From positions 9,420,790-9,484,789 of the forward strand of contig JAKZAN010000002.1 of assembly GCA_023053545.1 (NCBI GenBank): a stretch of DNA of 64,000 bases. Direction: 5' to 3'. Below the pieces are notes generated by a model. The model was given only the letters and a program-made list of their open reading frames with translations, had not been told where the DNA came from and searched no databases. The stretch comes from Lepidurus packardi. Its lineage: Eukaryota > Arthropoda > Branchiopoda > Notostraca > Triopsidae. Shown in pieces: positions 15,966 through 53,690 of the stretch. A program made the position numbers and the translations under genes. Numbering within the stretch: the first letter of the stretch is position 1; each line of letters starts with the position of its first letter.

Positions 15966-18959
15966 TTAACGTTTCTTCAGATAACGAGCCACGCAAGCAT
16001 CTCTTTGGCAAGCCACTTTGGCCAAGTCAGCGTCTTCATCTTGTTCGTGTAATGACCGAAGAGCTTGGGCCATGCGACGAGCTCGGGAAAGACAGATGAG
16101 ATCCCCTTGGCAAATGGCTTGACTTTGTTCATTAAACGTCCATGTGCAGGCATTCGTTTCTTCGTCCTCATCCACCTGGTAGGAAACGTAATGAAATTAT
16201 AATACTAAAGCTGTATTCTCTCAAACTACATATAAAGTTCTTCCCATCCTCTTCTGGGAAGTCTAAAAGACCTCTCTTTTAAAAATATACTTACGCAAAG
16301 AAGACAGGCTTGGTGACGGTTGCATGTATCCATAAAGAGGTTATGATAATCTCCAGTAATCTGACTTACTACGTGGCACACTGGTAGGATTTGACGAAGT
16401 ACAGGACATTCTTCTTCATCTAGTAAACAATAAGCAAAATATGGTTACAGGACATGTTTTTATCGATCACTTTCATAAAATATAACAGTAAGGGGTTCTA
16501 GAAAACAGGTACCGCATGCATTACTGAGGGAACATTCCCTGTCATCGCTTTTAGGCCTCTTTTCGAGACTTATTGTTGCAGAAAGCTATCGTGTATCAGT
16601 AGACTAAAACCTGCAACATGCGTATAGTGACGTCTGGGATTATTTTATAGTATTGAACGTCTGGCAGTGTCTAGTAGACAAGCTTTTCTTATCTCGTACT
16701 AAATTACGCTAAAAAGAACCGTTCGCTTCCCAAAGCTGCGACCGTGGCGCGCAATCCCCATGTGTTCTCGCTCCATCATATGTTATCTCAGCAATACAAA
16801 CCACGTTTTGGAGCGTTGAGGTATCGTAAAGCATATAACGTATCTAGGATGCATTGTTCCTTCTTACTTTTTTGTTTCTTTTCTTTTTTCTTACCTGAAC
16901 GATGAGTGTCAAGGGAATAAAAGCCCGGCTCTTGCTCCAACCACTGTTGCATACCAGCTCGTTTAGCTACGTCGAAGGGATAGCGTTTTTTTAAGGAACG
17001 TTTCTTTTTTTTCGTTTTAAGATTGTCTTCATCCTCATCCTGATCGTCTTGCTCATCATCGTCCCACTGTTTTCCTGGGAGAAATCCTTCTCTCAGTTCA
17101 TTGTCTTCGTCATAATCTTCCCAATCGCGCTCGTTGGCCAAATGCCGTTGCAGACGTTGTTTCAGATCAGCCACCATCTCTTGTAACTGCGCCATGCTCA
17201 TACGGTCAATCAATTCGGCCATGTAATGTGCCTCGCTTTGCTGTCGGTCAGGGCTGTTTAATTGTCGTCGACGTCTTCGGCGAGACAGAACCGCATCGTC
17301 GTCGTTCCCATCGTTTCCGTCGTCCAATTCGTTAGTGTCGGGACCTTCGTTAACCAAACTTGAACTTTCCCAAGCAACCTCGTCGGATGTGGGACCAGCT
17401 TGTTGCTCCTCCCGTCCCCTCCATTTTTTCATGGTTTCCTCTTCGAATTCATCGCCTTCCTCGTCGTCTTCACCGTCTTCCATTTCGGTTAGATTAACAT
17501 CGTCCTGGCGATCCTGGTTACCGATATCGCTGTCCAGATGACGTGGGACAGAGTTTCTTTTCTTCATAACCTTGCCGTGTGAATGGTGGTCAAAGCGTTT
17601 ACGACGCGATACCAGTGAGCCGGCAATTGCTTTGTAGTATTCGGATTCTAGCCAGTCACGTAAATCCTCATCGGTGCGCTTATCGATACCGAAATAATCG
17701 TCCCAGTCCACCGACTTTTTCCGGATATTCTTAGTCTTGCTTTTCAGGGAATTCTCTCGGCGCGCCAAAGAAGAACTGATGGGTCGATGTTTCTTGGGAG
17801 CGTGGGTGGAGGTGCCGGTTAAATTCACCGTCTTGGAAGCATTGATCTGGACTTTTGCTTCCGCTAGGACGGGCAACGCTCGCGGTGGCTCCATTTCAAC
17901 TTGACGGCGTTTACGGATAGGGCGTTGCAAGGATGGCGTTTCGCCGGCCGATGACAAATGACTTGTGTGTTGCTGTAGCTGCTGGCCATTCTGTTTGCGC
18001 TGAGCACGCTGGACAGAGCGCTTTTTCATTTGCAGATGAGGATATTGATGCATGTTGCTCCAGCGCTTGCCAGCAGGCTTCCATTGTTCCCGGAAGCCAG
18101 CCCAATTACGATGAAATCCTCGACTGGGTCCTGCCTGACCATTGACGCCATTATCATCCTCGGATGATGAGCCATGTGGGTAGAGCATTCCGCCTTGGTC
18201 TTGGTCGGCTTCGGAGACGTAACGAGCCCGCCAACGAGCCGGAGCACGAGGCATAGCTCGTTTGCGCTCATCCATGAACTCGCTAAGGTTCTCGTCGTCG
18301 TCATCTGAATCAAGTCCTTCGGAGGCTAATTCTTGCAGTATGGCAGCAATGGCTTCATTTTCCGCTTCTTGGCTTTCTCCGTCTTGCTCATCGTCCGCGA
18401 CTAAAGGTCCTGGATCAGACTTATCGGAAAGAGTCATCTCTGGGGTTCGTTCTTGTTGTTGAAGGTGGCGGAGTAAAGCGAACCATGATTCATCGTCCAA
18501 TTTGCCCAGTAATTGCCGAAATTCCTGGCGGCCTTGACGAGTACGAGCGTAGTCGTTAAATGATTGGAAGGCGGCCTCCAAAGAACGTTCGGTCGGTTCC
18601 AAGTGCTGAGCGTGACGACGGAAACCGAATTGGTCCCGTACGTCCCCTATTAAAGGTTCAGGCTCATAATCGTTAACTGCTGCATCAGGACTTGGGTTAA
18701 AATAAGATCGTTTGATGTGGAGTGGGTAGCGATACCGGACCAAACCACGGGGTGTAGGACGGCGAACGTCTCGGCGAACCCGGGTAACGGCATCTAAGGC
18801 AGCTTTCAGGCTGGTTGAGTTTTCATTGTTGCTATTGCCCGTGAAATGAGCGTTCTCTGGTAAAGTATGAGGGGCGGCGGGTGCGGCGTCACTGTTTGGA
18901 CACCATTGATAGATGATCATCCAAATGACCATCCCACGCAAAGTTAGCCATAGTTTCAT
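15966..18959 (-). CDS. Secreted, dibasic-rich precursor with C-terminal 10-cysteine domain
   Basis: Three exons: 16895-18959, 16295-16419 and 15966-16175 (2,400 nt, 799 residues). An in-frame ATG at 19040 would add 27 residues, but the one at 18959 opens directly into a signal-like stretch (LTLRGMVIWMIIYQW), so I chose it. The middle is low-complexity, rich in Asp/Glu, Gln, Ser and basic clusters (VRRDVRR, RKRR, RRRRRR, KKR), like granin or prohormone precursors. It has no cysteine cluster until the end. The two small exons encode a compact domain from about residue 693 with ten cysteines (CPVLRQILPVC, DTCNRHQACLLC, NACTW, AICQGDLIC, VACQRDAC), presumably five disulphides. I do not recognise a named family. 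A regulated-secretory or extracellular protein is likely; a peptide-hormone role is inference only. Confidence 0.78.
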
Positions 18960-20063
18960 GCTGATGAAGCTTTGCTGCAACGCCCCAGCACTGTCTAGCG
19001 TCAACTTGAAATGTCTGTACCAAAGGAACATAAATTGCATGGAAGGTTAGAACCTGCAGTCATTTCAATCTGCATTACGGATTACGCCCATTTTCTTTTC
19101 TTAATCAAATAGATTTTGGATTTCGCTTTATGTTTTTTAAAGTGATAGTTATACGGCTTATTTCTAGTGCCATATAGACACTGTTAAATGTCCTTTTAGA
19201 GCAAGTTTTAAGTTCATGATTGACGAAGTTAAGGGCTTCAGAGACTTATAGTTTGAGCTTTGAGCTGAGAGGCTATGCGATCTATAGGAAAATCGGAGTT
19301 GCTACATGTTACACTGCGTGCGGCGTATTGTGTAGGTGCTTTTATGATACATTACGAGTAATTGCCAAACACCATAGCAACGCAATCATTGACACAGTAA
19401 AGTAGAGTAGAGGCAAGGTAGTGCTATTATGAGCCATATAAAAGCCTTTGCATTCTTTATAACTCCCAATTGACGATCATATACCATTTCCCATGGAGTC
19501 ACCCTGCTTATCCGTGGGATCATTACGGTGTGTCGGCATGAGGCAGGAATTTTTAACACAGCAGGAATGTCGGAATCATCTCGGGAATCTCGCTAGAATA
19601 TTTTCTCCTGAATTTCTATACCCATTACCGGACATGTTGAATCCCCCAATTCCAAGCTGTTTCCCAACAGCTTACGAAGTTCCTGAATCTAGTAAGCGTG
19701 CAATTTGGGCTTACGACATTTTTTTCTTCATAAAGTGGAGATGGAAAAGGAATGACAGAGACTGTATGTACCGGATTTCGATAAAGCTTGGCATGCTTAT
19801 ACGCCCATGCTTTATTCCTAGCTTTCGAAAAGGAGTACCTTTAAAAAAAAAAAACTAAGCCAATGTGCGAGGGAGATATATTGCATCAGCTACTTTCTTA
19901 ATACTTCTATAAGACGTTTGTGGAGTCAGGGGAACTTTCCCGTTGAGTAAAAGCAACATCGGCGCCCTTCAAAGACAACAAGCTAGTCTATAGCGAAAGC
20001 AAGCAAAGTAGGAGTCAGCAATCGATAATTTAAGGCGATCCTTCGGTATATCTCTCTGCAGAA

Positions 20064-27243: not shown

Positions 27244-30200
27244 TTATTGGGAAGTAATTGGCTTTGAAGGAGACAAAAAGAAGTACGCTACGTACTTGTA
27301 TTCCGCGTGGTAGTCTCTTAGTAAGTCTCGATTTTCGCTGAATAGAACGCCGCTATTGTCGTTCGTTATAGTGAGCCAAACAGGGTACGTGGGCGTTTTA
27401 AGTCGCGATCCAATTTGTAGTGTGTTCGTTTTATCTTCCGACCCCAACCAGACGAGCAATCCTAAAAGCGATCTGCTTGTAATCCCCACTTGAGCCACAG
27501 CCTGTACAATTTCCATTTCAAATTTTCCGTATTAAGAATCTGCTATTTTCTCTCCCTCTTCTTATTTTTTTTTAAATTTTCTTCATGCATAAAATAATTA
27601 AAAAAAACAAAAATATTAGAAGAAGTGAAAGGGAATTAAAGGAAATTAGGGTGCACTTACGAAGTTGTTTTCGTCGCCCACGTAAATTATGCTATTATGT
27701 AAATAAGGGGTCGCGCGTCCAGTAAGCATGAGAGTTATGACGCAGAAAGAAATATCCCCATTCAAATTAATCATTGGTGCGTTGAACGTGTGCCGCAAAC
27801 TGGCTGGTAAATTGCTTCTGCCCAGGTCGTCGTATATCCTATTTTAGAATTGTTTCTTTTTTACTTCTTTTCCTATAATTTCTAAGTGATTTTTTTATGG
27901 TTTCGAAGGGGTGAAATGTTCTTTCATTTCTTCCTTCTCTTTTTGCGTGGGTGTTTTTCATTACCTTGGAATGGTACGGGAAAGAATGGCGCTGTAGAGC
28001 AGTAATATCAAGGCCGGTCCAGGATCTGCTTGGAACTGTAAAGAATGGGTGTGGGGAGGGAGTAAAAAGAACTTTGTTTCATTTTGTTCTCTTTTTTGGG
28101 TGTTTTCTTTGGGTGTGAGGAGGCGATTTAATGTTAATGGACACTACTTAATTAAGTCCCAGGACAACTGTTATCAGAAGTAGAGCAAGCCTGATACTCG
28201 CACAGGAATCACACATATAAGCCAGTTTCTGTTCGTTGAGCTGGTATGGGTGGCTTACCAGATATAAGTAGCGTCTGACAAGGATGAAGAGATCGTCGTA
28301 TGTCTGTGCCACGAGTAAGTGAAGCTTTGGGCCAGAGCAGTGATATGCAGCATAACGATGCAAAAAGGAGCAAATGAATTTAGTTGGGCAATTTTTCTTG
28401 CTTTGTCTGTAGTCGTTAATACCTTCTCGGTGACGCCGTCCACGTTGTATGTCTCGCTTTCCGAGACGTATGCTTGAGATTGCGGAAGACATAACATCGC
28501 TTGATGGCTGTCTCCAGCAGCTTTCCAAAGAATATCCGTTAATGCTGTGCACAAAGCCTCTTGTTGCGCAGCCTTGCCCGGTTTCAAGGGACTGGGAATA
28601 ATAGCAAGACAAACCCCTATTAGACCTTTGTGTTTTTAGGACTTGGCAAACGTTCTAAGATAAAGTTGGACGAAAGAGAAGTCGGAACTAACTACTTTCT
28701 ACGGAAGCGCATACCTGGAGCACTCTACGAATTGAATAGTTAAACACGATTATAGAGGAAAAACTCGAAGTAAACTGAAACGAAGTCCCTTTAAGCAGCA
28801 ATAGCCACCCAACAAATAATTGTCTGAAAAACAGGATGAAATTTTGCTTCGAGTTTTATTTTTCTTTCCATCGTGCGCAAAGTAAGTAATTAAAATTTTG
28901 AACAGGGAAGCAAGATCATGTGGTTCTTTAACATCACAGAAGTACCGACCGTACGGTACCCGAGATATTTTTTTTTATGTTTTAAGCATGGAAATAAACA
29001 GTAACGGTGGTAGCAAGCGCCGCACGCCATGCCATGACACGCCTGTGACGTCACGGCCATAAATTTGCATGCCAATAGATTTTGAACGGCTGTCTTAGAA
29101 AAATTGTCTACAAGAATCTCTGAAAACCTCAACGTATGGTTTTGCTGGCTGTTGCCCTTTAATAGAAAGTCGTTATTGGTAAACATAAATTTCGTTTGTT
29201 TACAGATCGTGGGAAGGTCGTAAGGTTGGTGAAGGGCAATCTGAGGTATTACACTTTATGTAAGGAGTTTGCTAATGTATCAGTTTCAGTTTACTTTTAG
29301 TATAAGAAAAGTGAGGCATTTGGTTTTAAGTTTGAAAGTACGGCTCCTAAACCATTATTCATAGAAAAGGGCCAAGGTAAATAGCTCCTGTCACGTCATA
29401 TACGTGTAATGGAAGGAGCCGCTTTGTGCGCTTTCTTTACGTTGTAAACATTCTGGAGATAGCCATCGTATTTGTGCGTCCCACGCTTCGCAACATGCTG
29501 CTTTATACAAATACTCTAGGGTTTATTTATAACATGCTCTGTGCTCGCGAATTTTCTGCATTGGCAACAATATAATTGGGACGGTACCCCATGGCGTGAC
29601 AATAGCACATTGACCTTGCGTGACCTAGAAGCATTATTTCAAGGAAGCATTGCGTCTACACATATTTGGCATGCTTTTACAGCAGGTCTTGTCGAGGAAG
29701 AACGCTTAGTCACATATATAGGCGTGTTTAGTACGGAATAACTTATGGAAATCTATTTTAATCGTGAGGAAGTTGAAAGAGAACAAAAGAGCTTTGGAAA
29801 CTGTTTTAGAGGCTTACTGGATCGTGTCAGGTCTGAGGGAAGTAAAACTGCGAGACCGAAATAAGAGTGAAGAGCGTCGAGAAATACTGCCTCCGTAGAA
29901 GCCTCTGCTCACCATATTTTCAACCATTTTGGTAACGGAAACCGACTTGCTGTAGTGTATATATTATGTACATTGTGGGCACGATGGGTCGTAAAAAGAT
30001 ATAAACAAGAACAGAGAACAAACAAACGGGAGAAAAAGGCAAAAAACAATGAGGGCGAGTACACGAAAACGAAGAAGAAATTTATTCCTAAACGATTTTT
30101 GGCAGATCTAGCGTAGTTACTACGGAAAAGTTACTACGGTTACTACGGAAAAGTTCGATTCGAGTAACTGTAGACTCACGTCAAATCCTGGTCTAGTTCA

Positions 30201-32080: not shown

Positions 32081-34794
32081 AGTACTTGACGTTTTGTTAG
32101 AAACTATGCTTACAAGTACGAGAATCACATTAGCGTCGTAATGGAGACACTATTAAAGCAAGGTGCAGTGCTTTGCGATGTGACCGACCGACTGACCTAA
32201 GCGTAATATAAACCAGCTCAGGTAGAAACCACCTCGCAGGTAATACTAAAGACTATAGCACCCTACCTATGCCGCCGTACCCACCCTTATGCCTCCTGTT
32301 TTACGTTAGAGAACAAGGACAGGTAGGACCCGCCCCTTCTTCAGCAAAGAAAAAAGTCGTAGACGGGATAGAAATGGAGGGAGAAGGGGGTGCACGGGAA
32401 TCATCGATCAGCGATTTCGGTTCTCGCGCTTCGGCTCTAGTATGGCGTAGAACCTGGGAAGAAGTTTGGGAGCAGCTTTATATACAAAAAAAAACACAAG
32501 GTATAGAAACAGGAAGGTCGATAATCTTCTTACCCTTGTATTATAGACCGTACATTTTTTTATTCAACGTATGTTGACATGAGTGAGTCAGATCCCTCTT
32601 CACCTTCCTTTGACACCTTCAAAAAGTCTTCCCCTTTATCCCCCCTCCTTAGTTCCCCTCACCTACAACTTTTGCTTTCACTCTATGTTATGTGCTCTGA
32701 TTAATTAATAGCACTTTGGTGGTTAAATCACAATGCTTCCTTTATATAACCTTTTGTAACCGACTGCGATTTCCGACGACATTGTAAAACTATAGTCGGT
32801 TTGGCGCTCTTTTAATTTCTTTTTTGCTTAAATGTTTATTTTGATATGCCGCTTTAATATCTTAGAAACTTACGTACAGTTCCAAGCAATTAAGGAAGAA
32901 AAACAATACATAATAACCAAATTTTATAACCTTTGGATTTTTTTTTTTTACCCAGGTGGTGCTAAGCACGGAACGGAAATTTGCAGAATTAATGTATTTT
33001 TTGGATGGCAGCGTAAATTTTGTTGAAGGAAATTGAAAGGAAACAAAAACATCCACGAGTTTTTACTGGATGCAACACACGTTCGTTTTTAAGAAGGTTT
33101 AACTTGGCTCGTTATTGCGTGAAAGTTTAACGTGCTGTATACAATTTGTCAAGGTGACTAGTTATTATATCCTTCCTTTCTATTATAAGCGTTTTTGTTC
33201 CTCTTTTTGCCTTAAAGATGGATGTCGTGCATTCATGAAGAGGAATTAAGTGATACTTCCTAGGTTTATACGCTGTCTTTTTTGTACACAAGTCAAGTTT
33301 CTTAACAAGTCTTTATGAAATACTATATTTGCTTTGCTATGACAAGTTTCCGTCTGGTCCGTGAATAAAGAGACAGCCAAACTGGCCTCTAAACTGGCTT
33401 ATGGCTACCATTTAGAGCTCTCCGAGACGTCAAACGTCAGACGTTACATTAAACGGGCTCTATGCTATGCAGGATTATACTTCACTATAGTGTAGTAAAC
33501 TTCTCTTATACGTTGGAACGGTAATCTTGCTGTGTAATGACTTTATGGAAGGGGCAATTGACGCGTTCCAGCAAGGCAGAAACTAACAGGTACAGCATAA
33601 TAATTAGACAGGACGGACCAAAGGCACATGGCTCAAATTCCGTGGCAATGAATTCTAGCACGTCAAGCATATAAAGAAAGTCCAGTTGACTCTTAACGTT
33701 TTTCATGTTTGTTTTTGTAGGTGATGAGGTACAAGGCGAGCTAATATTTATTGATCAAGTTAAGATTAGCGGTTCTTAATGACGCCAGATTGTTTGCTTT
33801 TGTACAACAAAAACCCGTTGAACGATTTCCGTGTACAACAAGAAGCATTAAAAAATCCCGACTAGTTTCACGGGAGCACGCTAAGGGTTGTCTATAAGTT
33901 GGCTTCGAGGGGAACACGACAATTAGTACTCCATTTTGGAAGGATCGTATAATTGCTGCAGCCCAGGCGGAGTGTTGAAGGGTAATTATTACCACTGGTT
34001 CCGTGCTCTAGATCAATCTTGTTTCCCCATCACGAAACTTCGATTCTGTCCTAAAATTTACTTTCTAATATCGGGAACCTCGCTGAGCACAAGCATCAGC
34101 TCGAGCTAGTGGTTTTCTTCCTTTATATATAACATCGAAACAAACACGTTTTTCTTTTCGTTTTGTATTCTAGAAAACGTGCTCATTTTTATTGAGCTCT
34201 TATAGTATAGATTCAAGTTGTAATAAAGCAATATTCTGGTAACGACGGGACTTAAGTCTGCTCTTCTTTGACATCACCCCCTCCCCCTCCCCAGTGAGTT
34301 CAAACGTCAAAGACGTCAATGGCTTTGACCTAAATGGAGCTTCGGCGTATTTTAAAAGTGCAATACACTTCTGTTTGTTGGAATTGGCATTACATAAAGC
34401 CGTACCGGAATTAAACAAGGCTAGAGCCACGTTTTTTTTAAGATCGCTAAGGGGATCGGATATCTGGACCGCATGTGTCACTCCTTCTTACGTAAGATGG
34501 GTTTTGCTGTGCTCATGCGGTAGCTTCATAGACAGCATCCCACAGCTTGGAACCGCATCTTAAAAGTTGGGGGGAGGGGAAGACCCACATTGGTTTTAAA
34601 CATCGCAGTGAATGCGATGACTTTAGAACGTTGACAGCTCAAGGTTTCGGTTTCGTTCTCGAACTTTTAGTTTCATCCAAGCCGTTGCTTCTGACGAACG
34701 TGAAGGGACAAGTCCTCTTTGCAAAAGCACGTGTACCTTTTTATTGTGCCGTTTACCCTCAGGAAGTTTCAAATAAGTGATCTATCTGGAAATC
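32081..34794. other. Divergent intergenic region
   Basis: Between the MINDY-4B-like and laccase genes. The 102-codon frame at 32269-32577 shows no family features and is probably chance. C/T-rich and A-rich tracts are common. No repeat ends or RNA genes were recognised. Confidence 0.45.
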
Positions 34795-40193: not shown

Positions 40194-41567
40194 TTACAAC
40201 TGAAGCAAGAAAGTTAAATCAGTATTTGACAAATTACCTGCTATCCACTGGTCAACACGTTCATTCATAGTTTTGGAAAAATGGTTTTTCCAGTCTCCAC
40301 ATTCACCTTTTCGCATAAAGTGACCACTAGGATTCAAATATCCCATTTTCTTGCCTACTTCAGTATTAACTGCTGGATTCTCTTTAAAGTTTTTGAAACT
40401 CAGATGTTCCACTAAAGCTTCTACTTGTTTTTCTGTCAGAGATTTGTCCAGAAATAAAGCCAACCGTTGGATTTCACAGAGCAGATCCTAAAATGTAGTA
40501 AAACAGTTTTTACAAATTTTTCCTAAGCTGTTTTTATTTTATTGGATAATGTTCTACTGAATACCTTTTTCATGTCTTCATAAAACATGTAGTGCAAATT
40601 AGCATGGTCTCGCTTCTCCCAGGCTTCGAGAACGTGATGAAAGAAAGAACCGTAAACTGTTTCATCACGCATGAAGTAGTCTGCGAATTTCTCCATACTA
40701 ATGATACAGTCCTGGATTTTGATTAACTTGTGATGGTAGTAATAAGACGTAATAACATCCTTCGGATTCCGGGCCATGTACACTACTTTGGCCACATCGA
40801 GGAGATCAGGTGGAAGCAAGCGTAAAGGTAAATGTGTTTTGATTAAACGGGGAGATGGAAGATGTACCAAATCTTCAACTTTGAGCAGCTTTCTTCTTAT
40901 ATATTCGTTCCCGGGAGCGTTCATTCCAGGAAGTAAACTCACCCTAAATTTATTAAAACTTTTATCCTTTCTTTTAAGATTAACCATAACCATAAAAATA
41001 TTATACAAATTTAATAAAGGAAGAAAATTAGAGTAAATACAGAAAACTGGTCTGAACTGATATAAAATTAGTGGAAATTAATTTTTTCAAAATCTAAAAA
41101 AAATTGACAGTTGAAGAAGAATTTTAAAAAATAAACAAAAGTTTTAAGAATCGAAGACAAATTTCGAAAATTAATTACTTACTCCAAGAACGGAGAACGT
41201 AATTCGAGAGGTAATTTGGCTCCTATAAAGTCACAGTCAGTGCTAATTAGCCAAGCCATTTCTTGGGCCCAGGTTGTTCCTAATGATAATAACAAAAAAG
41301 TTTTACGTTTATAAAAGAGCGAGCGAGGATACATTAGCTTTTGATAGACTTGCCACATTTGGGAAAAGTGACGATCCAGACATCATCAGGTCTCACTTGC
41401 ATATTATAGATGCTGTCGGCTTTATCCCAGAATGCTGTTCCCATTAGAATACTTCCGGGCTCTCCGCGAACGAAATCTTCTTTATAATTTGGAAAATCAC
41501 GATTGATGGCTTCATTGCGAGAACTCTCCAAAGGAACTAACGTGACAGACAACCTTGCTTCAGCCAT
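40194..41567 (-). CDS. Cytosolic sulfotransferase SULT-A (intact)
   Basis: Four exons: 41354-41567, 41183-41279, 40565-40943 and 40194-40487 (214, 97, 379, 294 nt; 327 residues). PAPS-binding motifs: PKCGTTW at 69-75 (5'-phosphosulfate loop, Cys in place of the usual Ser), RNPKDVITS at 162-170 (3'-phosphate) and RKGECGDWKNHF at 289-300. The catalytic His is in IKTHLP, at about 141. No signal peptide is seen, so it should transfer sulfate from PAPS to small hydroxylated substrates in the cytosol; the substrate is unknown. Intron 1 starts with GC (TGTG|GCAAGT) where every readable paralogue has GT. No GT donor keeps the frame, so a GC-AG intron is needed. Confidence 0.93.
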
Positions 41568-42232: not shown

Positions 42233-44729
42233 TTATTGTAGACGGAAAGTTAGAGTCGTATTTGCCAAATTGTCTTCCATCCATTTATCGACGCGTTCGT
42301 TCAGACTCGGAGAAAAATGATTTTTCCAATCTCCTATTTCACCTTTCCGTATGAAATGACCGTCTTTATGGATAAACCCCGACTCTTTGTAGGCCTCGTT
42401 GTTAACTGCTGAATTTTCTTTGAAATTCTTGAAGGTAAGATGTTGCACCAAATCATCTTTTTGCTCGTGTGTCAAAGGCTTTCCCAGAAATGAAGCCAAT
42501 TTTTGAATTTCTCCTCTTAGATTCTAAAATGAACCAGAAATGCGTGTCGGTAAATGAATTTTGTTCGGTTATGTGAGGGAAATACCTTTTTCATCTCTTC
42601 ATAGAACATGAAATGCAAGTTAGGATGATCTTTCTTATTCCAGGCTTCTTTAACGTGTTGGAAGAAGGATCCGTAGACTATTTCGTCACGCATAAAGTAA
42701 TCAGCGAATAATTCTACGTCACCGATGCAGTTTTGGGCTTTCATTAACTGATGGTGATGGTAGAACGACGTAATTACATCTTTCGGATTTCTGGCTACAT
42801 AAACGACTTTGGCAACGTCCAGAAGGTCTGGCGGTAGTACAGAAAGCGGTAAGTGTGACTTGATCAAACGCGGAGATGACATCTTCTCAATGTCTTCAAC
42901 TGTAGTCAGCATTTTGCGGAACTCCTCTTTCCCTGGTCCACTCATTCCAGGAAGTAAAGTCATTCTATTTTATTATCCAATATTAGTCTATGTAAACAAG
43001 GCGATTCCAACAAGTTACTCCAAGTATGGAGAACGTTTGCCGAGAGGCACTTTGGCTCCTTCGAAATCACAGTCATTGCAAATTAGCCAAGTCATGTCTT
43101 GCGTCCACGTTGTTCCTATAGTATAACAAATTTCACACCGAATGAGTCGATAATTGTTTTAGCTTTATGAAATAATATGTCTGTTTTTTAGTAATATTTT
43201 TAATATATTTATTAATGTATCGCTTTTAATTGTTTAAAAAGCTGAACTTTTATTAGCTTCTATTTTTAATTTACAGTCGGCGCCGCTTATAGTGATCACG
43301 TTTGTCCAGCCAATTTTGATTCTTATAACCGAGCATCGGAAATATGTGTTTATATAGGTGGCAAATCTTTTAAATTTAACTTGTCGTAAGTTTCAATGAG
43401 TCGCAACTTCTCTTCTACATTTAAATCAACTCTTTTCTTGTTCGTCTCCATTTTTGTGCAACCACGCGTCCGAAACACAACTAACACTGCGCTTCTGAAG
43501 CCTAGTCCTAAACTTAGGTAGGTTCTCAACACGATATCCCTTCTAATTTACCTAGTCAGTTAAACGAACTGGTCATTCTGAATCGAATAACCTGCTCTTT
43601 AATTGACTAGGGAGTTTAGAGGGGATTCCCCCCTAAGCGTGTAGGCTGGAAATGCAACTTACCGCATTAGACAGGATTAGTCAAAACAACGTAAAAGCAA
43701 TGTCATTGGTCCATACGCAAAGTCCCTGTAGCTTTCACTATATACTCTGGTTTCGTTACTGTACTATACCTTCCAAAAAAAACGAGTATAGGGAAACCAC
43801 AGTGGTCTAATCCCCTACCCGTGGGATTAATTAAAGACTGCTTAACGAACCGATTTGTAGGTCTCCTGTCTAAAAACCAAACCGAAACGTATAGAAAGCG
43901 GAATCCGTTTTAACCCTGGGCTGTAGAAATTTATCGAAATACCACTATTTCTCATTCCAAGAATTTCTCCCTTTTTGTCTGATGTCAGATGAGGAGCCAT
44001 GTTTATTAGAAACTGACATGCAAGTGTGATATAGACTAGTAATATTACCTTTCACAAAAATAACCCCACCTCGGAGAAACTAGGATTCTACTTTCCTTAG
44101 TTTTGGTTTGGTTTTAGAGAGGAGCGGGTTCGACCGAGCAAATTTTAATTAATCCCACGGGTAAGGATTAGCCCGCTGTGGTTTCCCTATACTCGTTTTT
44201 TTTGGAAGGTATAGTACATGCGAAGATTCTTTTGAAATTGATTCTTATATACAAAAATGTGATTCTAACAACAGATGAAAATACCATGTATTTTATCATT
44301 TTGAATCGGTCCTTTAACATTTGATTCCTATAAGCGGCTGATTCTTTTAACCAGTGAGCACTATAAGCGACACCTACTCTTTTTAATTTTTATTCGCAAA
44401 TTATGTATACTTTATAACGGTTATTAGCTTTCACTATTCAATAGTTTCTTAGCTGTAAACTTTCTGTGAAGTTACTATATTTTTATAAGTTATAATCACT
44501 TGAAATACAACTTACCGCATTTGGGGTAAGTGACGATCCATACATCATCAGGTTTCACTTTCATGTTGTAGATTTTTTTGGCGTTATACCAGAATTCAGT
44601 ACCCATCAAAATACTTCCAGGTTCCCCCCGAACAAATGAGGCGTTATAATTAGGAAAATCGCGATTAATAGCGTCATTTCGCTCTCTTGGTATTGGAAGA
44701 AACTTGACTCGCTTCGTCAAATCCGACAT
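42233..44729 (-). CDS. Cytosolic sulfotransferase SULT-B (intact, transposon in intron 1)
   Basis: Exons 44516-44729, 43019-43115, 42586-42964 and 42233-42523 (214, 97, 379, 291 nt; 326 residues). It has TYPKCGTTW, the catalytic His in IKSHLP, ARNPKDVITS and RKGEIGDWKNHF. Exon phases equal those of SULT-A. Intron 1 is 1.4 kb, against about 60-75 bp in the sister genes, because it carries a pogo/Tigger-like element with a second element inside it. Splice sites around it are canonical (GTAAGT donor, TATAG acceptor), so the gene should still be functional. Confidence 0.92.
43274..44379 (-). mobile_element. Deleted pogo/Tigger-like DNA transposon
   Basis: The left end CAGTCGGCGCCGCTTATAGTG is matched in inverse orientation by the right end (AGTAGGTGTCGCTTATAGTG read from 44378 inward). 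The left flank is TA; the right TA is not intact. On the minus strand at about 43350-43451 a frame reads METNKKRVDLNVEEKLRLIE then YDKLNLKDLPPI and stops. This looks like the start of the CENP-B/Psq-type DNA-binding domain of pogo transposases. Nearly all the transposase is missing, so it cannot move by itself. Confidence 0.65.
43763..44215. mobile_element. MITE nested in the pogo-like element
   Basis: Terminal inverted repeats of about 70 bp run inward from both ends (CTATACCTTCCAAAAAAAAC, then GAGTATAGGGAAACCACAG and onwards to TACCCGTGGGATTAATTA). TA flanks both ends, as expected for the Tc1/mariner group. There is no coding capacity. Its position inside the larger element shows that it arrived later. 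Confidence 0.75.
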
Positions 44730-45108: not shown

Positions 45109-46264
45109 TCATAACTCTTGACAAAAAGATAAAGTGGTATCAGCCAAGTTATCCGCAATCCATTGATCTAAACGGGCGTTCAAAGCAACTGCAAAATGGT
45201 TTTTCCAGTCTCCAGTTTCGCCTTTTCGAACGAAATGGCTGTCGGGGTTCCCGATACCAATTTCTTTCAAGAACTCCCCATTGACAGCTGGGTTTTCTTT
45301 GAATGTCTTGAAGCTAAGATGCTCCAGCAACGCATTCATCTGCTGTTCCGTAATACTTTTATTAAGAAAGGACGCCAATTTATGGATTTCGCTTCGCAGA
45401 TCCTAACGAATAAAAGAATTTTAAAAAATCAAGATTATCGAACAAGTTAGACGACTTATTCTTTGAACGCGTACTACTGTTGCGTACTACGATGTTATTA
45501 AAAATAAACACCTCGTCTATTTTACCTTCTTCATGTCTTCATAGAATATGTAATGTAAATTGGGATGATCTCGTTTCTCCCAAGCGTCTTTGGCATGATT
45601 GAAGAACGATCCGTACATGATATCGCCGCGCATAAAAAGTTCTGCAAACTGCTCCATAGTACCTTTGTACTCATCTTGTTTTATCAACTTGTGATGGTAG
45701 TAATAAGATGTAATAACATCTTTGGGGTTTCTGGTTACGTAGACAACTTTGGCCACCTCCAACAAATTCGGTGGGAGGAAATTAAAGGGTAAATGCGATT
45801 TAATATAACGAGGGGATGGCATCTTGTCTATTTCTTCGAAACTGGGCATAATTTTTATTGTTTCTTCTAGAATTGTAGCATCGGCTCCGATAATTATACT
45901 TGCTCTAGACATTTTGGTAAATAAGGTTGTAAATTTAACTACTTTATAACTTTAAATAGACTTCCTCTTCGCTCACTCCAAGTATGGGAAACGCTGTCCG
46001 AGAGCCACCTTGGCTGCTTCGAAATCGCAATTGTTGCTAATTAGCCAGGCCATCTCCTGTGTCCAAGTGGTTCCTAATATAAGAAACGTTTTTTTAATGA
46101 ATTCATTTTAGTTGGACACTTCAAAAACTTACCACATTTCGGAAAGGTAACGACCCAGGTATCATCTGGCCTTACTTTCATGTTATAAATTTTCTTGGCT
46201 GCGTCCCAGAACGTCTTACCCATTAAGAAGCCACCTGGATCACCGCGAATTAGGGTGCCCTTAA

Positions 46265-47323
46265 AGGGGGAGTAAGGTACGAAAAAATAAAAAAATATGT
46301 TATAGAGGAGACCAAAATAAGTGTTCTGGCTGAAGAACCCCTATGTCAATTATGCATATTAACCGAGTAATTAATTATTTAGCGGTTTAAGCTCCGCCCC
46401 TTTCCGCCAAATTTCAAATTTTCCTATCCTTATAACATTGGCGGACAGTTGGCCGGAGGCCTAGCGACTTTACCTGTGAGCGCATTCAAAATCGATCCCA
46501 GATCTCATAGGGACCGTACCGTGACCTTTCTTTTGAATGCTTAAGCAGTTTTTTACGCGCTTTGGTTACTTCACAAACTTAATCACAAAAAACCACTTTT
46601 TCTTCGCGCCACGACGGGAATGTTCCGTTCTGTGGCTCAACGAACGTCAACGCCGCGAGCGTGGAGCTCACAACCTGTGTCAGGATAGCCTGCCGGACTA
46701 ACATATTGGGGAGAGCTAGGCTAAGAAGCCTTGGAACGCGTGTTATCCAAAGTCGACATTCCAAAGCGTGGTCTTGTATACGTGCTGACTATTCGCTTGT
46801 TTAGTTTATTAGTTTGTGTCTTTATAAGCTTTGAATTAAAATGAGTGATAACGATAGTGTTTCAAGCGATTCTTCGGATTCTTCGGTTAGTCCGGCAGGC
46901 TATCCTGACACAGGTTGTGAGCTCCACGCTCGCGGCGTTGACGTTCGTTGAGCCACAGAACGGAACATTCCCGTCGTGGCGCGAAGAAAAAGTGGTTTTT
47001 TGTGATTAAGTTTGTGAAGTAACCAAAGCGCGTAAAAAACTGCTTAAGCATTCAAAAGAAAGGTCACGGTACGGTCCCTATGAGATCTGGGATCGATTTT
47101 GAATGCGCTCACAGGTAAAGTCGCTAGGCCTCCGGCCAACTGTCCGCCAATGTTATAAGGATAGGAAAATTTGAAATTTGGCGGAAAGGGGCGGAGCTTA
47201 AACCGCTAAATAATTAATTACTCGGTTAATATGCATAATTGACATAGGGGTTCTTCAGCCAGAACACTTATTTTGGTCTCCTCTATAACATATTTTTTTA
47301 TTTTTTCGTACCTTACTCCCCCT
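46265..47323. mobile_element. Palindromic TTAA transposon with 438-bp inverted arms (Kolobok- or piggyBac-type)
   Basis: Arms 46265-46702 and 46886-47323 are each 438 bp and appear identical in inverse orientation over all the sequence I compared. The spacer is 183 bp. The ends are AGGGGGAGTAAGG...CCTTACTCCCCCT, each flanked by TTAA (46261-46264 and 47324-47327). TTAA duplication is used by the piggyBac and Kolobok superfamilies; as I recall them, the purine-rich AGGG terminus fits Kolobok better than piggyBac (CCC-type ends). The spacer has a short ORF that looks like the N-terminus of a transposase. The arms look like a 5' half copied in inverse orientation, a non-autonomous foldback-like derivative. 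Confidence 0.85.
46841..46951 (+). pseudogene. Transposase N-terminal remnant inside the palindromic element
   Basis: The 36-codon frame starts MSDNDSVSSDSSDSSV in the spacer and runs into the right arm before TGA. An acidic, serine-rich N-terminus is common in TTAA-type transposases. No catalytic part is present. This is a weak call based on composition and position. Confidence 0.35.
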
Positions 47324-47928
47324 TTAAACTGAGGCATTTCACGATTAAGGGCAGCACTGTGGTTGCTGTCTAAAGGTACGCCCTTGACGGGCAACTCTAA
47401 TTCTGCCATTTCAACCACTCTTGTAACTTACGTTCCTATAGTAAACAGATCTCAGTGTTATAATTTAAAGACACTACCAATGTTTCTTGGGCTTTGGTAC
47501 GAACTGACCGTTTTTTGAACACTGGCTTATCTTATTTTGCGAAACGACTTAACATCTGTTTCTGGTCCAGCAAAAAGGGGCGAGAATTCGTATCGAAAAA
47601 TGAAAATGACCTTCGGATCTTTATTGAGACAGGCCTTTCCCTTGTGTACCTTATATCTTTAACTTTTTTTTTCTTAATTCTTATCGTACAACTTATGCGA
47701 GTTATCTCGTAACCTTACGTCCTTGATGCTCTTGTATCGCCTTGGTTTTATTCGTCTTCAAAACTTGAGCCCTAGCTTGGTTTTAATTGCGGAAATGAAC
47801 AATTTATTTTAAAAAAGGAAGTATCAATCTTGATTGTCAAGAACCACGTCTTTATTAGACATTACGTTAAAAACGGATATAATTAGGTAGTTCCTTGTGC
47901 TAAGAATCGTAAACGAATATTGTGCTTG

Positions 47929-48709
47929 CCACTGTTACAAAACTTCTGCGATTTGTGGAGAAAAACGTCCACGAAAAACGGGTAAACGAAAGTGCAGTGT
48001 TTTCTTCTCACTTTTTTCCGACTGCAGCACCCTCCCAATAACAGCAGTTTCCGAACTGCACTTTTAGAAGTCGTCGAGCTTCTAAAAGTGAACCTTCGAA
48101 TCTGCAGTTTTAGAAGCCGTCTGGCTTCTAAAACTGCAGTTTGAAATCTTCACTTTTTAAAGTCGTTGGGCTTCTAAAAGTGCACTTTGGAAACTCCACT
48201 TCTAGTAGTACTCGAGCTTCAATAACGTAAACCTTAATGTACAGTAAGTGAAATTCGTTTATTTGTTTTTTTTTGTCATTTTGTGTTGCAAACAACAAAA
48301 CAATAACAAACAACAAAAAATAAGCTTAATTACAAATAAACCATAAACGTAAAAATACAAACGTACAAAACGCACAACGATGTTTTACGAACATTAGAAC
48401 ATTAGAAACTACGAAACATTAGAACAACGAACATTAGAAACTCCAGGCGATGACTACGGACTTTCGAGACATGCTTTTGCCTCTGTGAGGAAAGGCAAGA
48501 ACGATACCAGCGAAACGCACATTTGCGTTTCCTTATCTTTAAATCCGAGGCATTCCGATTGTAGAAATAATAGAGTTGGCTTCACGTAAGAGGAGTATTT
48601 TGTGTTAAAGACGTAATACGCCGCCATCAATACTGTTACCGCTTCTGCTGAGCTATTACCGATGTAGATGGGTTCACTCCCATCTCCAACTACTGATAAG
48701 TCGGATCCC
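47929..48709. repeat. Long tandem repeat, copy 1
   Basis: It starts CACTGTTACAAAACTTCTGC and ends just before the same start of copy 2. It contains an ordered series of inverted repeats (48059-48090, 48102-48139, 48151-48182), each with TTCTAAAA-type stems and loops such as TCGTCGA or CCGTCTGG. The minus strand has an open frame, 48454-48708. Confidence 0.85.
48454..48708 (-). pseudogene. Repeat-borne ORF, copy 1 (85-codon conserved part)
   Basis: The frame reads GSDLSVVGDGSEPIYIGNSS, then AEAVTVLMAAYYVFNTKYSS, and ends in a stop after ACLESP. The downstream repeat copy has the same frame with only three or four residue changes. It resembles the tail of an uncharacterised element-borne protein; I cannot name it. 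It opens from the repeat junction without a clear start of its own. Confidence 0.4.
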
Positions 48710-49535
48710 ACACTGTTAAAAAACTTCTGCGATTTGTGGAGAAAAACGTCCACGAAAAACGGGTAAACGAAAGTGCAGTGTTTTCTTCTCACTTTTTTCC
48801 GACTGCAGCACCCTCCCAATAACAGCAGTTTCCGAACTGCACTTTTAGAAGTCGTCGAGCTTCTAAAAGTGAACCTTCGAATCTGCAGTTTTAGAAGCCG
48901 TCTGGCTTCTAAAATTGCAGTTTGAAATCTTCACTTTTTGAAGTCGTTGGGCTTCTAAAAGTGCACTTCAGAAACTCCACTTCTTGAAGTACTCGAGCTT
49001 CAATAACGTAAAACTTAATGTGCAGTAAGTGAAATTCATTTATTTCTTTTTTTGTCATTTTGGGTTGCAAACAACAAAACAAAAAACAATAACAAACAAC
49101 AAAACAAAAAACAGTAACAAACAACAAAAAATAACTGAATTACAAATAAACCATAAACGTAAAAATACAAACGTACAAAACGTACAACGATGTTTTATGA
49201 ACATTAGAACATTAGAACCTAGGAAACATTAGGAAACACTAGGAAACAACAAACATTGGAAAGTCCAGGCGGATGACTACGGACTTCCGAGACATGCTTT
49301 TGCCTCTGTGAGGAATGGCAAGAACGATACCAGTGAAACGCACATTTGCGTTTCCTTATCTTTAAATCCGAGGCATTCCGATTGTAGAAATAGTAGAGTT
49401 GGCTTCACGTAAGAGGAGTATTTTATGTCAAAGACGTAATACGCCGCCATCAATACCGTTACTGCTTCTGCTGAGCTATTACCGATGTAGATGGGTTCAC
49501 TCCCATCCACAACTACTGATAAATCGGACCCCACT
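48710..49535. repeat. Long tandem repeat, copy 2
   Basis: Same order of blocks as copy 1, starting CACTGTTAAAAAACTTCTGC, with hairpins at 48840-48871, 48883-48920 and 48932-48963. It is slightly longer because of AACAAAACAAAAAACA-type expansions near 49070-49130. Confidence 0.85.
49277..49534 (-). pseudogene. Repeat-borne ORF, copy 2
   Basis: 85 codons starting MGSDLSVVVDGSEPIYIGNS and ending ACLGSP. It is nearly the same as the frame in copy 1 (changes include G/V, NT/DI and E/G). Both copies stay open, which could simply mean that the duplication is recent. Confidence 0.4.
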
Positions 49536-50145
49536 GCAATTATAAAAGGTGGGCCCCTTTTTATTTCAGAAATTGAATCAAGCAGGTTTGCGGATTCCTT
49601 TCAAAAAGAGAAAACAATGTTACACAGACTTCTCAACCAAAGAAACGTTCAGTTACCTCTCGTATGTCAAATAAATGTCTCCATGCGTTCCTATCCTTCT
49701 TTTGCCCATGAGCATGCGAGGACGAATTTCCAAAACAAGGCGATAAGCCACTTCTAAAATTGGAGTTGGTGATGAATGCTAGTTAATTTTTTTCTAACTT
49801 GAACTACCTGATTCATTGTCGAACTCCTTATGCTTTATTTAACTTCGAATTCGTCCGTCTCCTCGGAAATCGCATTGTCTAACTCGACAAAAACTAGCTT
49901 GTTCTCGTCTACCATATTCCGTACTTTTAGGCACGCAGGGTTTTTCTAACTCTGTCAAAACTATACAAATATATTCAATCTATATTTAATAAGATTAAGA
50001 AATTTACAGAAACAAGTGTAAAACGGGTCAAACACGGGTCTTCAAAACGCCTTTCGCAGCAACAGTGAAAAATTTATATATATATATTTTATTTTTTCCA
50101 TTATTTTTTCCCGTGGTTACTTTGTTTGCTTACTTTTTAGCTTTT

Positions 50146-53195: not shown

Positions 53196-53690
53196 AGTAG
53201 ACGAGGGTATCTTCCAATGTAAGGGTATTCGATCCTGCTTTTTTGGTCTCAATAGGATGTGGCAGTAGCCCTACTGAGGAACATAGGAGGGGATGGATTC
53301 ACAGTCTTGCCCATCGTACTAATCTACTGTGTAAACCTTTGTACTGTGGTACATAGGTTTCTCTGTAGGATAACAAGGGTATCTTCCAATGCAAAGGTTT
53401 TGGACCGACTCTCTAAGTCTCAATAGTATATTCAAGTAAAAGTCCAGAATATCAAAGGGTACACTCGAAAACCACCCAGTGCAGTTCAAAAAAGGTCACA
53501 ACGGTTTACAAAGCTCTCAGAGTTCTTAGAGTACGGATTAAGAGTGCCTACTTGGGGTTACGATGGGCACGGTCTGTGAATCCATACCTCCTACGTTCCT
53601 TAGTACCCGCACATCCTCCTGAGACCGAGAAGCCCGGTCCCAAAACCTTTACATTGGAAGATACCTTTTTGTTATCATACTGTAAAACTT
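53196..53690. mobile_element. Compound MITE with an extra internal end
   Basis: The left end (GGGTATCTTCCAATGTAAGG, from about 53207) is matched inverted by the right end (ACCTTTACATTGGAAGATACC, about 53645-53665). The inverted match extends inward: GGATTCACAG at 53294 pairs with CTGTGAATCC at 53573, and GCCCATCG pairs with CGATGGGC. A second left-type end (GGTATCTTCCAATGCAAAGG) sits inside at about 53380, so two copies are nested or one arm is duplicated. There is no coding frame. Confidence 0.75.

What the first reader, a model, noticed from the sequence alone, without database searches (positions are those of the whole stretch)
46261..47327. Transposon insertion in a SULT coding exon that is exactly reversible on paper
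SULT-C is intact in every exon except for one element placed in exon 1 at a TTAA. Both copies of TTAA are perfect. Subtracting the element and one TTAA gives an exon of 214 nt, the same as in SULT-A, B, G and I, and keeps the reading frame. The homologous site in pseudogene D is empty. This suggests a very recent, possibly polymorphic knock-out. TTAA-type elements of the piggyBac group are known for precise excision, so the allele might revert.
Basis: partly seen in the sequence, partly recalled or inferred. Interest (0 to 1): 0.85.

Follow-up and report, generated by a model that had tools for sequence, protein, structure and literature searches.

The report
Mobile DNA hairpin breaking sulfotransferase gene
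A 1,059-base piece of mobile DNA, almost a perfect mirror image of itself, has landed cleanly inside the first exon of an otherwise intact sulfotransferase gene and probably switches that copy off; its ends look like the Kolobok class of transposon rather than the suggested piggyBac class, so clean reversal should not be expected.

Summary
SULT-C (minus strand) has four exons. Exon 1 (47409-46133) carries a 1059-bp element at 46265-47323 between two TTAA copies. Without the element and one TTAA the exon is 214 nt, as in A, B, G and I, and the gene has a 327-codon open frame. The element is a 442-nt perfect inverted repeat (TTAA included) around a 183-nt loop.

The piggyBac label is not supported: its ends are AG...CT, while piggyBac ends carry CCC or CC[C/T]T. 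TTAA plus RR...YY (AGGRR) ends is the Kolobok/T2-MITE signature. No transposase was seen, so this rests on ends alone. In KolobokP, excision deletes 1-5 flanking bp, which argues against exact reversal.

Unspliced, translation stops after 63 codons. Most likely this is a young loss-of-function insertion. An unmentioned alternative is splicing: donor GA|GTAAGG, pyrimidine tract, TTTAA|G, +6 nt in frame. But the acceptor is AAG (0 of 15 natural ones), a competing donor 5 nt away shifts the frame, and 81 of 2000 end shuffles pass. Polymorphism and reversion could not be tested.

The parts
46265..47323 (.). Transposable element, 1059 bp, ends AGGGGGAGTAAGG...CCTTACTCCCCCT; Kolobok-type by its ends
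   Evidence: end signature
46261..46264 (.). TTAA target-site duplication, copy 1
47324..47327 (.). TTAA target-site duplication, copy 2
46261..46702 (+). Left arm of the inverted repeat (442 nt with TTAA)
46886..47327 (-). Right arm of the inverted repeat, 442 of 442 complementary
46703..46885 (+). Loop, 183 nt; holds an ATG at 46841 opening a 36-codon frame that runs into the right arm
   Evidence: no Pfam match
47324..47409 (-). SULT-C exon 1, part before the element (86 nt with TTAA)
46133..46260 (-). SULT-C exon 1, part after the element (128 nt)
45977..46073 (-). SULT-C exon 2
45526..45904 (-). SULT-C exon 3
   Evidence: Sulfotransfer_1
45109..45402 (-). SULT-C exon 4 to the stop codon
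46260..47316 (-). Hypothetical intron GTAAGG...TTTAAG (1057 nt) whose removal would leave exon 1 in frame, +6 nt
   Evidence: not shown to be used

Best explanation
A non-autonomous, fold-back DNA transposon of the Kolobok type (TTAA target, AGGGG...CCCCT ends) was pasted by a transposase supplied from elsewhere into a TTAA in exon 1 of SULT-C, duplicating the TTAA. Shown: the element, its palindromic structure, the target-site duplication and the otherwise intact gene. Inferred: the element is a mirror-image derivative of one end of a larger parent, because the loop holds an ATG and a Ser/Asp-rich start of a reading frame. Also inferred: the SULT-C transcript reads into the element, meets a stop after 63 codons and folds into a duplex of about 438 bp, so this allele makes no enzyme. 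The event is young on the scale of sequence change.
For: TTAA on both sides and a 214-nt exon without the insert. Intact 327-codon ORF in the empty-site form; pN/pS of C against A, B, G and I is 0.30-0.32, and 0.25-0.32 over all ten pairs, so C was constrained like its neighbours. 442 of 442 arm positions complementary. Kolobok makes TTAA duplications and, unlike piggyBac, has 5'-RR and YY-3' termini (PMC9587614 passages); T2-MITE has a TTAA target and terminal AGGRR, and one Xenopus Kolobok TIR is AGGGGAACTATCATGA (PMC6004289 passages). Unspliced reading stops after 63 codons. RNA fold of -939 kcal/mol, essentially one long duplex (no shuffle control above 1000 nt).
Against: No transposase and no second copy in the window (best other match E 0.016, 37 nt at 78%); no exact match of the end in viral or prokaryotic contigs, as expected for a eukaryote. 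The family call rests on the 4-bp TSD plus the ends. Sola3 also uses TTAA (recalled); its ends were not compared. The ends carry intron-like signals, so loss of function is not certain. Gene conversion between arms could hide age.
Confidence: 0.68

Rival explanations
1. The element behaves as a ready-made intron. On the gene's strand the donor GA|GTAAGG sits 7 nt inside the element and the acceptor is made from its pyrimidine-rich end plus the target (TTTAA|G). Splicing adds 6 nt and the enzyme is still made.
For: Donor score in the top 0.64% of 7298 window GTs when SULT-I intron 2 is in the training set; held out, it is 6.32, mid-range among the 14 leave-one-out natural donors (7 of 14 lower). 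GA|GTAAGG is also the donor of SULT-I intron 2, and 5 of 5 modelled SULT genes use GA|GT at intron 2. Pyrimidine fraction 0.88 against at most 0.76 in 15 natural SULT acceptors, with no AG between -61 and the junction. The occupied site is the only TTAAG among 26 TTAA in the five SULT coding sequences. 0 of 2000 whole-arm shuffles, and 1 of 2000 with the terminal AG kept, do as well. Introners adding 12 nt to a transcript are in print (PMC9860276 passages), and Kolobok-H sequence is reported in recently gained fungal introns (PMC8476143 passages).
Against: The acceptor is AAG, while 15 of 15 natural SULT acceptors are YAG. Its matrix score of -5.5 is below all 15 leave-one-out natural scores (lowest -3.23), and 51% of 7417 window AGs score as well. 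With SULT-I intron 2 held out, 4.1% of window GTs match the in-frame donor, and the neighbouring AAG|GTACGA is stronger (8.75) and shifts the frame. Looser thresholds: 37 of 2000 whole-arm and 28 of 2000 AG-fixed shuffles pass; with only the terminal 40 nt shuffled, 81 of 2000 strict and 391 of 2000 lax pass. That test does not penalise AAG. By a first-AG rule 9 of 26 TTAA sites would be in frame anyway (one of the 26 had no usable AG and counts as a miss). 42 of 57 x 60 donor/acceptor combinations restore the frame. Both splice sites lie inside the duplex, and the intron would be 1057 nt where C's other introns are 59-123 nt. The TTAAG point is post hoc.
Confidence: 0.15
2. A piggyBac-superfamily MITE, able to leave precisely from TTAA to TTAA.
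For: TTAA duplication. The Ser/Asp-rich start in the loop resembles piggyBac transposase N-termini (recalled, not tested).
Against: The ends AG...CT lack the CCC or CC[C/T]T motif given for piggyBac (PMC10813416 and PMC2872659 passages).
Confidence: 0.12
3. An assembly artefact (inverted duplication in reads).
For: Long perfect palindromes are a known artefact class (recalled); no reads were available.
Against: The palindrome ends exactly at a duplicated TTAA in an exon and encloses 183 nt of loop; an artefact would not be expected to give a target-site duplication.
Confidence: 0.03

Closest known systems
T2-MITE / Kolobok superfamily (PMC6004289, PMC9587614; passages seen)
   Same: TTAA duplication; AGGRR / RR...YY ends; non-autonomous like T2-MITE
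   Different: Published ends seen are short TIRs; here the arms are 438 nt and perfect, and no transposase or sister copy is in hand
Pokey and mPok MITEs of Daphnia (piggyBac; PMC3849761, passages seen)
   Same: TTAA insertion; non-autonomous derivatives (about 750 bp)
   Different: Imperfect 12 or 16 bp ITRs; superfamily with CCC-type ends
Introners (PMC9860276, passages seen)
   Same: TIR/TSD element in a coding exon; splice site can come partly from the TSD; one family adds 12 nt
   Different: Introner families have median lengths of 30-654 nt and at least 5 spliced copies; here one 1059-bp copy and no RNA evidence
Kolobok-H sequence in recently gained fungal introns (PMC8476143, passage seen)
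   Same: Kolobok-type DNA linked to new introns
   Different: Fungi, transposon remnants inside introns; no statement seen that the ends supply the splice sites
Mu killer of maize (recalled)
   Same: An inverted duplication of transposon sequence in transcribed DNA could make hairpin RNA against its parent family
   Different: No small-RNA data here; the arms appear untranslated rather than transposase coding sequence

Membership tests
Kolobok / T2-MITE | TTAA 4-bp target-site duplication | tested here: met
Kolobok / T2-MITE | 5'-RR...YY-3' termini; AGGRR in T2-MITE | tested here: met
   AGGGG...CCCCT against passages
Kolobok / T2-MITE | DDE transposase with THAP/H2CH in an autonomous relative with the same ends | not testable with these tools
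   no host genome is held; the 36-aa loop frame has no Pfam match
piggyBac | TTAA target-site duplication | tested here: met
piggyBac | CCC or CC[C/T]T terminal motif | tested here: not met
   ends are AGGGG...CCCCT; motif from passages
Sola3 | TTAA duplication (recalled) with Sola3-type ends | not tested
   the superfamily's ends were only in a figure that is not held
MITE | many similar short copies in the genome | not testable with these tools
   only the window is held; no second copy in it
Introner | element is spliced out of mRNA | not testable with these tools
   no RNA data; splice-signal scores are mixed
Introner | multiple intron copies of one sequence in the genome | not testable with these tools
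   no host genome is held
Sulfotransferase (PF00685) | domain match of exons 3-4 of SULT-C | tested here: met
   E 1.8e-62

The most novel reading that the evidence does not exclude
A Kolobok-type palindromic transposon whose mirrored ends carry, in either orientation, a donor (GA|GTAAGG) and a pyrimidine tract that turns any TTAAG target into an acceptor, always adding 6 nt in frame. It would be an intron-making TTAA element caught just after creating a new intron in an animal gene, at the only TTAAG of the five SULT coding sequences. In the library, 'introner' with 'piggyBac' occurs in one paper, where piggyBac is a comparison for insertion preference, and 'introner' with 'Kolobok' in one, which reports Kolobok-H in new fungal introns; neither describes this in the passages seen.
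Probability: 0.1. Interest if true: 0.65.

Novelty: new member of a known kind. Interest (0 to 1): 0.32.

Why it matters
As a plain insertion it is one more young transposon-made loss-of-function allele in a tandem gene family. It is a useful marker: a clean hit on one copy of a sulfotransferase array, with an exact empty-site test. Re-filing it from piggyBac to Kolobok changes the prediction about reversal from clean to scarred. If the splice-like ends do work, it would be an intron caught at birth in an animal gene, and the 'transposons make introns' model could be tested at a single locus.

Tried and rejected
Other copies: blastn of the element against the window with the element masked gave only weak matches (best E 0.016, 37 nt at 78%). 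Exact 24- and 21-nt end patterns found nothing in viral and prokaryotic contigs. Two near-matches to the end motif at 32647 and 38497 are not followed by TTAA. The pair TTAAAGGRR at 27636 / YYCCTTTAA at 28786 was read and shares little beyond the motif.

Rejected as proof of splicing: the frame alone (42 combinations restore it; 9 of 26 TTAA sites are in frame by a first-AG rule). Rejected as a date: the empty site in D, because D has no TTAA there now. The search for the string TTAAAGGRR in papers found nothing.

Errors of mine, corrected: the pattern for SULT-C intron 1 matched SULT-I's donor, giving a false length of 15020 (true length 59; the two donors have the same nine letters, so the matrix is unchanged). 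In one search exon 4 of C was read in the wrong frame because of the insert; redid it, and the pN/pS values quoted are those. I lowered interest-if-true slightly and left the probabilities unchanged.

Full report
Observation. The window holds a minus-strand array of sulfotransferase (SULT) genes. I modelled five copies with open frames (A, B, C, G, I), each with four exons. SULT-C exon 1 runs 47409-46133 and is 1277 nt long because 1063 nt are inserted: a 1059-bp element plus a second TTAA. Leaving these out gives 214 nt, equal to 4 of 4 of A, B, G and I. Exons 2-4 (46073-45977, 45904-45526, 45402-45109) continue the frame to a 327-codon protein; its exons 3-4 match Sulfotransfer_1 at E 1.8e-62.

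The element. Its ends form an inverted repeat of 442 nt (including TTAA) without one mismatch, around a 183-nt loop. The other 8 inverted-repeat pairs found in the window are at most 160 nt long and at most 96% complementary. On the plus strand the loop contains an ATG (46841) opening 36 codons, MSDNDSVSSDSSDSS..., that run into the right arm; they have no Pfam match. I read this as the start of a parent element's protein, and the right arm as a mirror copy of the parent's left end; that is inference.

Family. The piggyBac assignment rests on TTAA alone. piggyBac ends carry CCC (PMC10813416, passages) or CC[C/T]T (PMC2872659, passages); here they are AGGGG...CCCCT. Kolobok also makes TTAA duplications but, unlike piggyBac, has 5'-RR and YY-3' termini (PMC9587614, passages), and T2-MITEs show TTAA plus AGGRR (PMC6004289, passages). 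Kolobok-type is the better label, by ends only. Sola3, which also uses TTAA (recalled), was not tested.

Reversibility. No paper among the 25 of 119 listed, where papers with more of the terms come first, holds 'Kolobok', 'TTAA' and 'precise excision' together. PMC9587614 (passages) concludes that KolobokP excision removes 1-5 flanking base pairs on one side per event. KolobokP is a special lineage that its authors did not find in arthropods, so this is a lead, not a proof. It does point against an exact return to the empty exon.

Effect on the gene. Unspliced, translation stops after 63 codons, and the RNA would fold into one long duplex (-939 kcal/mol, no shuffle control). C had been constrained like its neighbours (pN/pS 0.30-0.32 for its four pairs, 0.25-0.32 over all ten; synonymous sites near saturation, pS 0.66-0.76). 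Loss of function is the likeliest outcome.

The overlooked alternative. On the gene's strand the element begins AGGGGGA|GTAAGGTACG and ends in a pyrimidine-rich stretch followed by TTTAA|G. Splicing there adds 6 nt and keeps the frame. For: GA|GTAAGG is the donor of SULT-I intron 2; the pyrimidine fraction of 0.88 exceeds all 15 natural acceptors (at most 0.76); the held-out donor score of 6.32 is mid-range for leave-one-out natural donors (7 of 14 lower); the occupied site is the only TTAAG among 26 coding TTAA sites; 0 of 2000 whole-arm and 1 of 2000 AG-fixed shuffles equal it. Against: AAG is used by 0 of 15 natural acceptors, and this acceptor scores below all 15 (-5.5 against a lowest of -3.23), like the median AG of the window; the frame-shifting donor 5 nt downstream scores higher when SULT-I intron 2 is held out (8.75); with looser thresholds 37 and 28 of 2000 pass, and with only the terminal 40 nt shuffled 81 (strict) and 391 (lax) of 2000 pass (the test does not penalise AAG); 9 of 26 TTAA sites would be in frame by a first-AG rule. 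I give the splicing rival 0.15, and the bolder claim of a general intron-making cassette 0.1.

Age. Zero differences in 442 arm positions gives a 95% upper bound of about 0.007 per site between the arms, if there was no gene conversion. The decayed neighbour D is empty at the site but has no TTAA there now, so it adds little. Polymorphism is untested: no genome of this host is held.

Host. Not named by any tool. Renin-receptor, SH3, multicopper-oxidase and biotin-carrier matches and short introns fit an arthropod; a Daphnia-like genome is my guess from recall. One D. magna paper lists Kolobok-H, PiggyBac and Sola-3 in D. pulex at 0.05-0.07% of the assembly and at 0.00% in D. magna (PMC8594854, passages).

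Conclusion. A real, clean, probably young insertion of a Kolobok-like fold-back element that most likely disables one sulfotransferase copy. It is ordinary in kind, with one cheap RNA test that could make it much more interesting.

Noticed in passing
43116-44515: SULT-B intron 1 is 1400 nt where A, C, G and I have 59-76 nt; it contains a 54-nt, 96% complementary inverted-repeat pair spanning 43760-44218, so another mobile element may have entered the same array.
   Followed up: partly
41280-41353: SULT-A intron 1 has a GC donor (GTG|GCAAGT); the other modelled copies have GT there.
   Followed up: no
47930-49540: Between SULT-C and pseudogene D a sequence of roughly 780 bp appears twice in direct orientation (by eye), with internal palindromic segments (pairs I2-I4).
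   Followed up: no
53206-53668: Degenerate inverted repeats (56- and 29-nt arms, 79% and 93%) in the array.
   Followed up: no
16788-19046: A 752-codon open frame on the minus strand, rich in charged stretches, with no Pfam match at E 0.01; possibly a secreted precursor protein.
   Followed up: no
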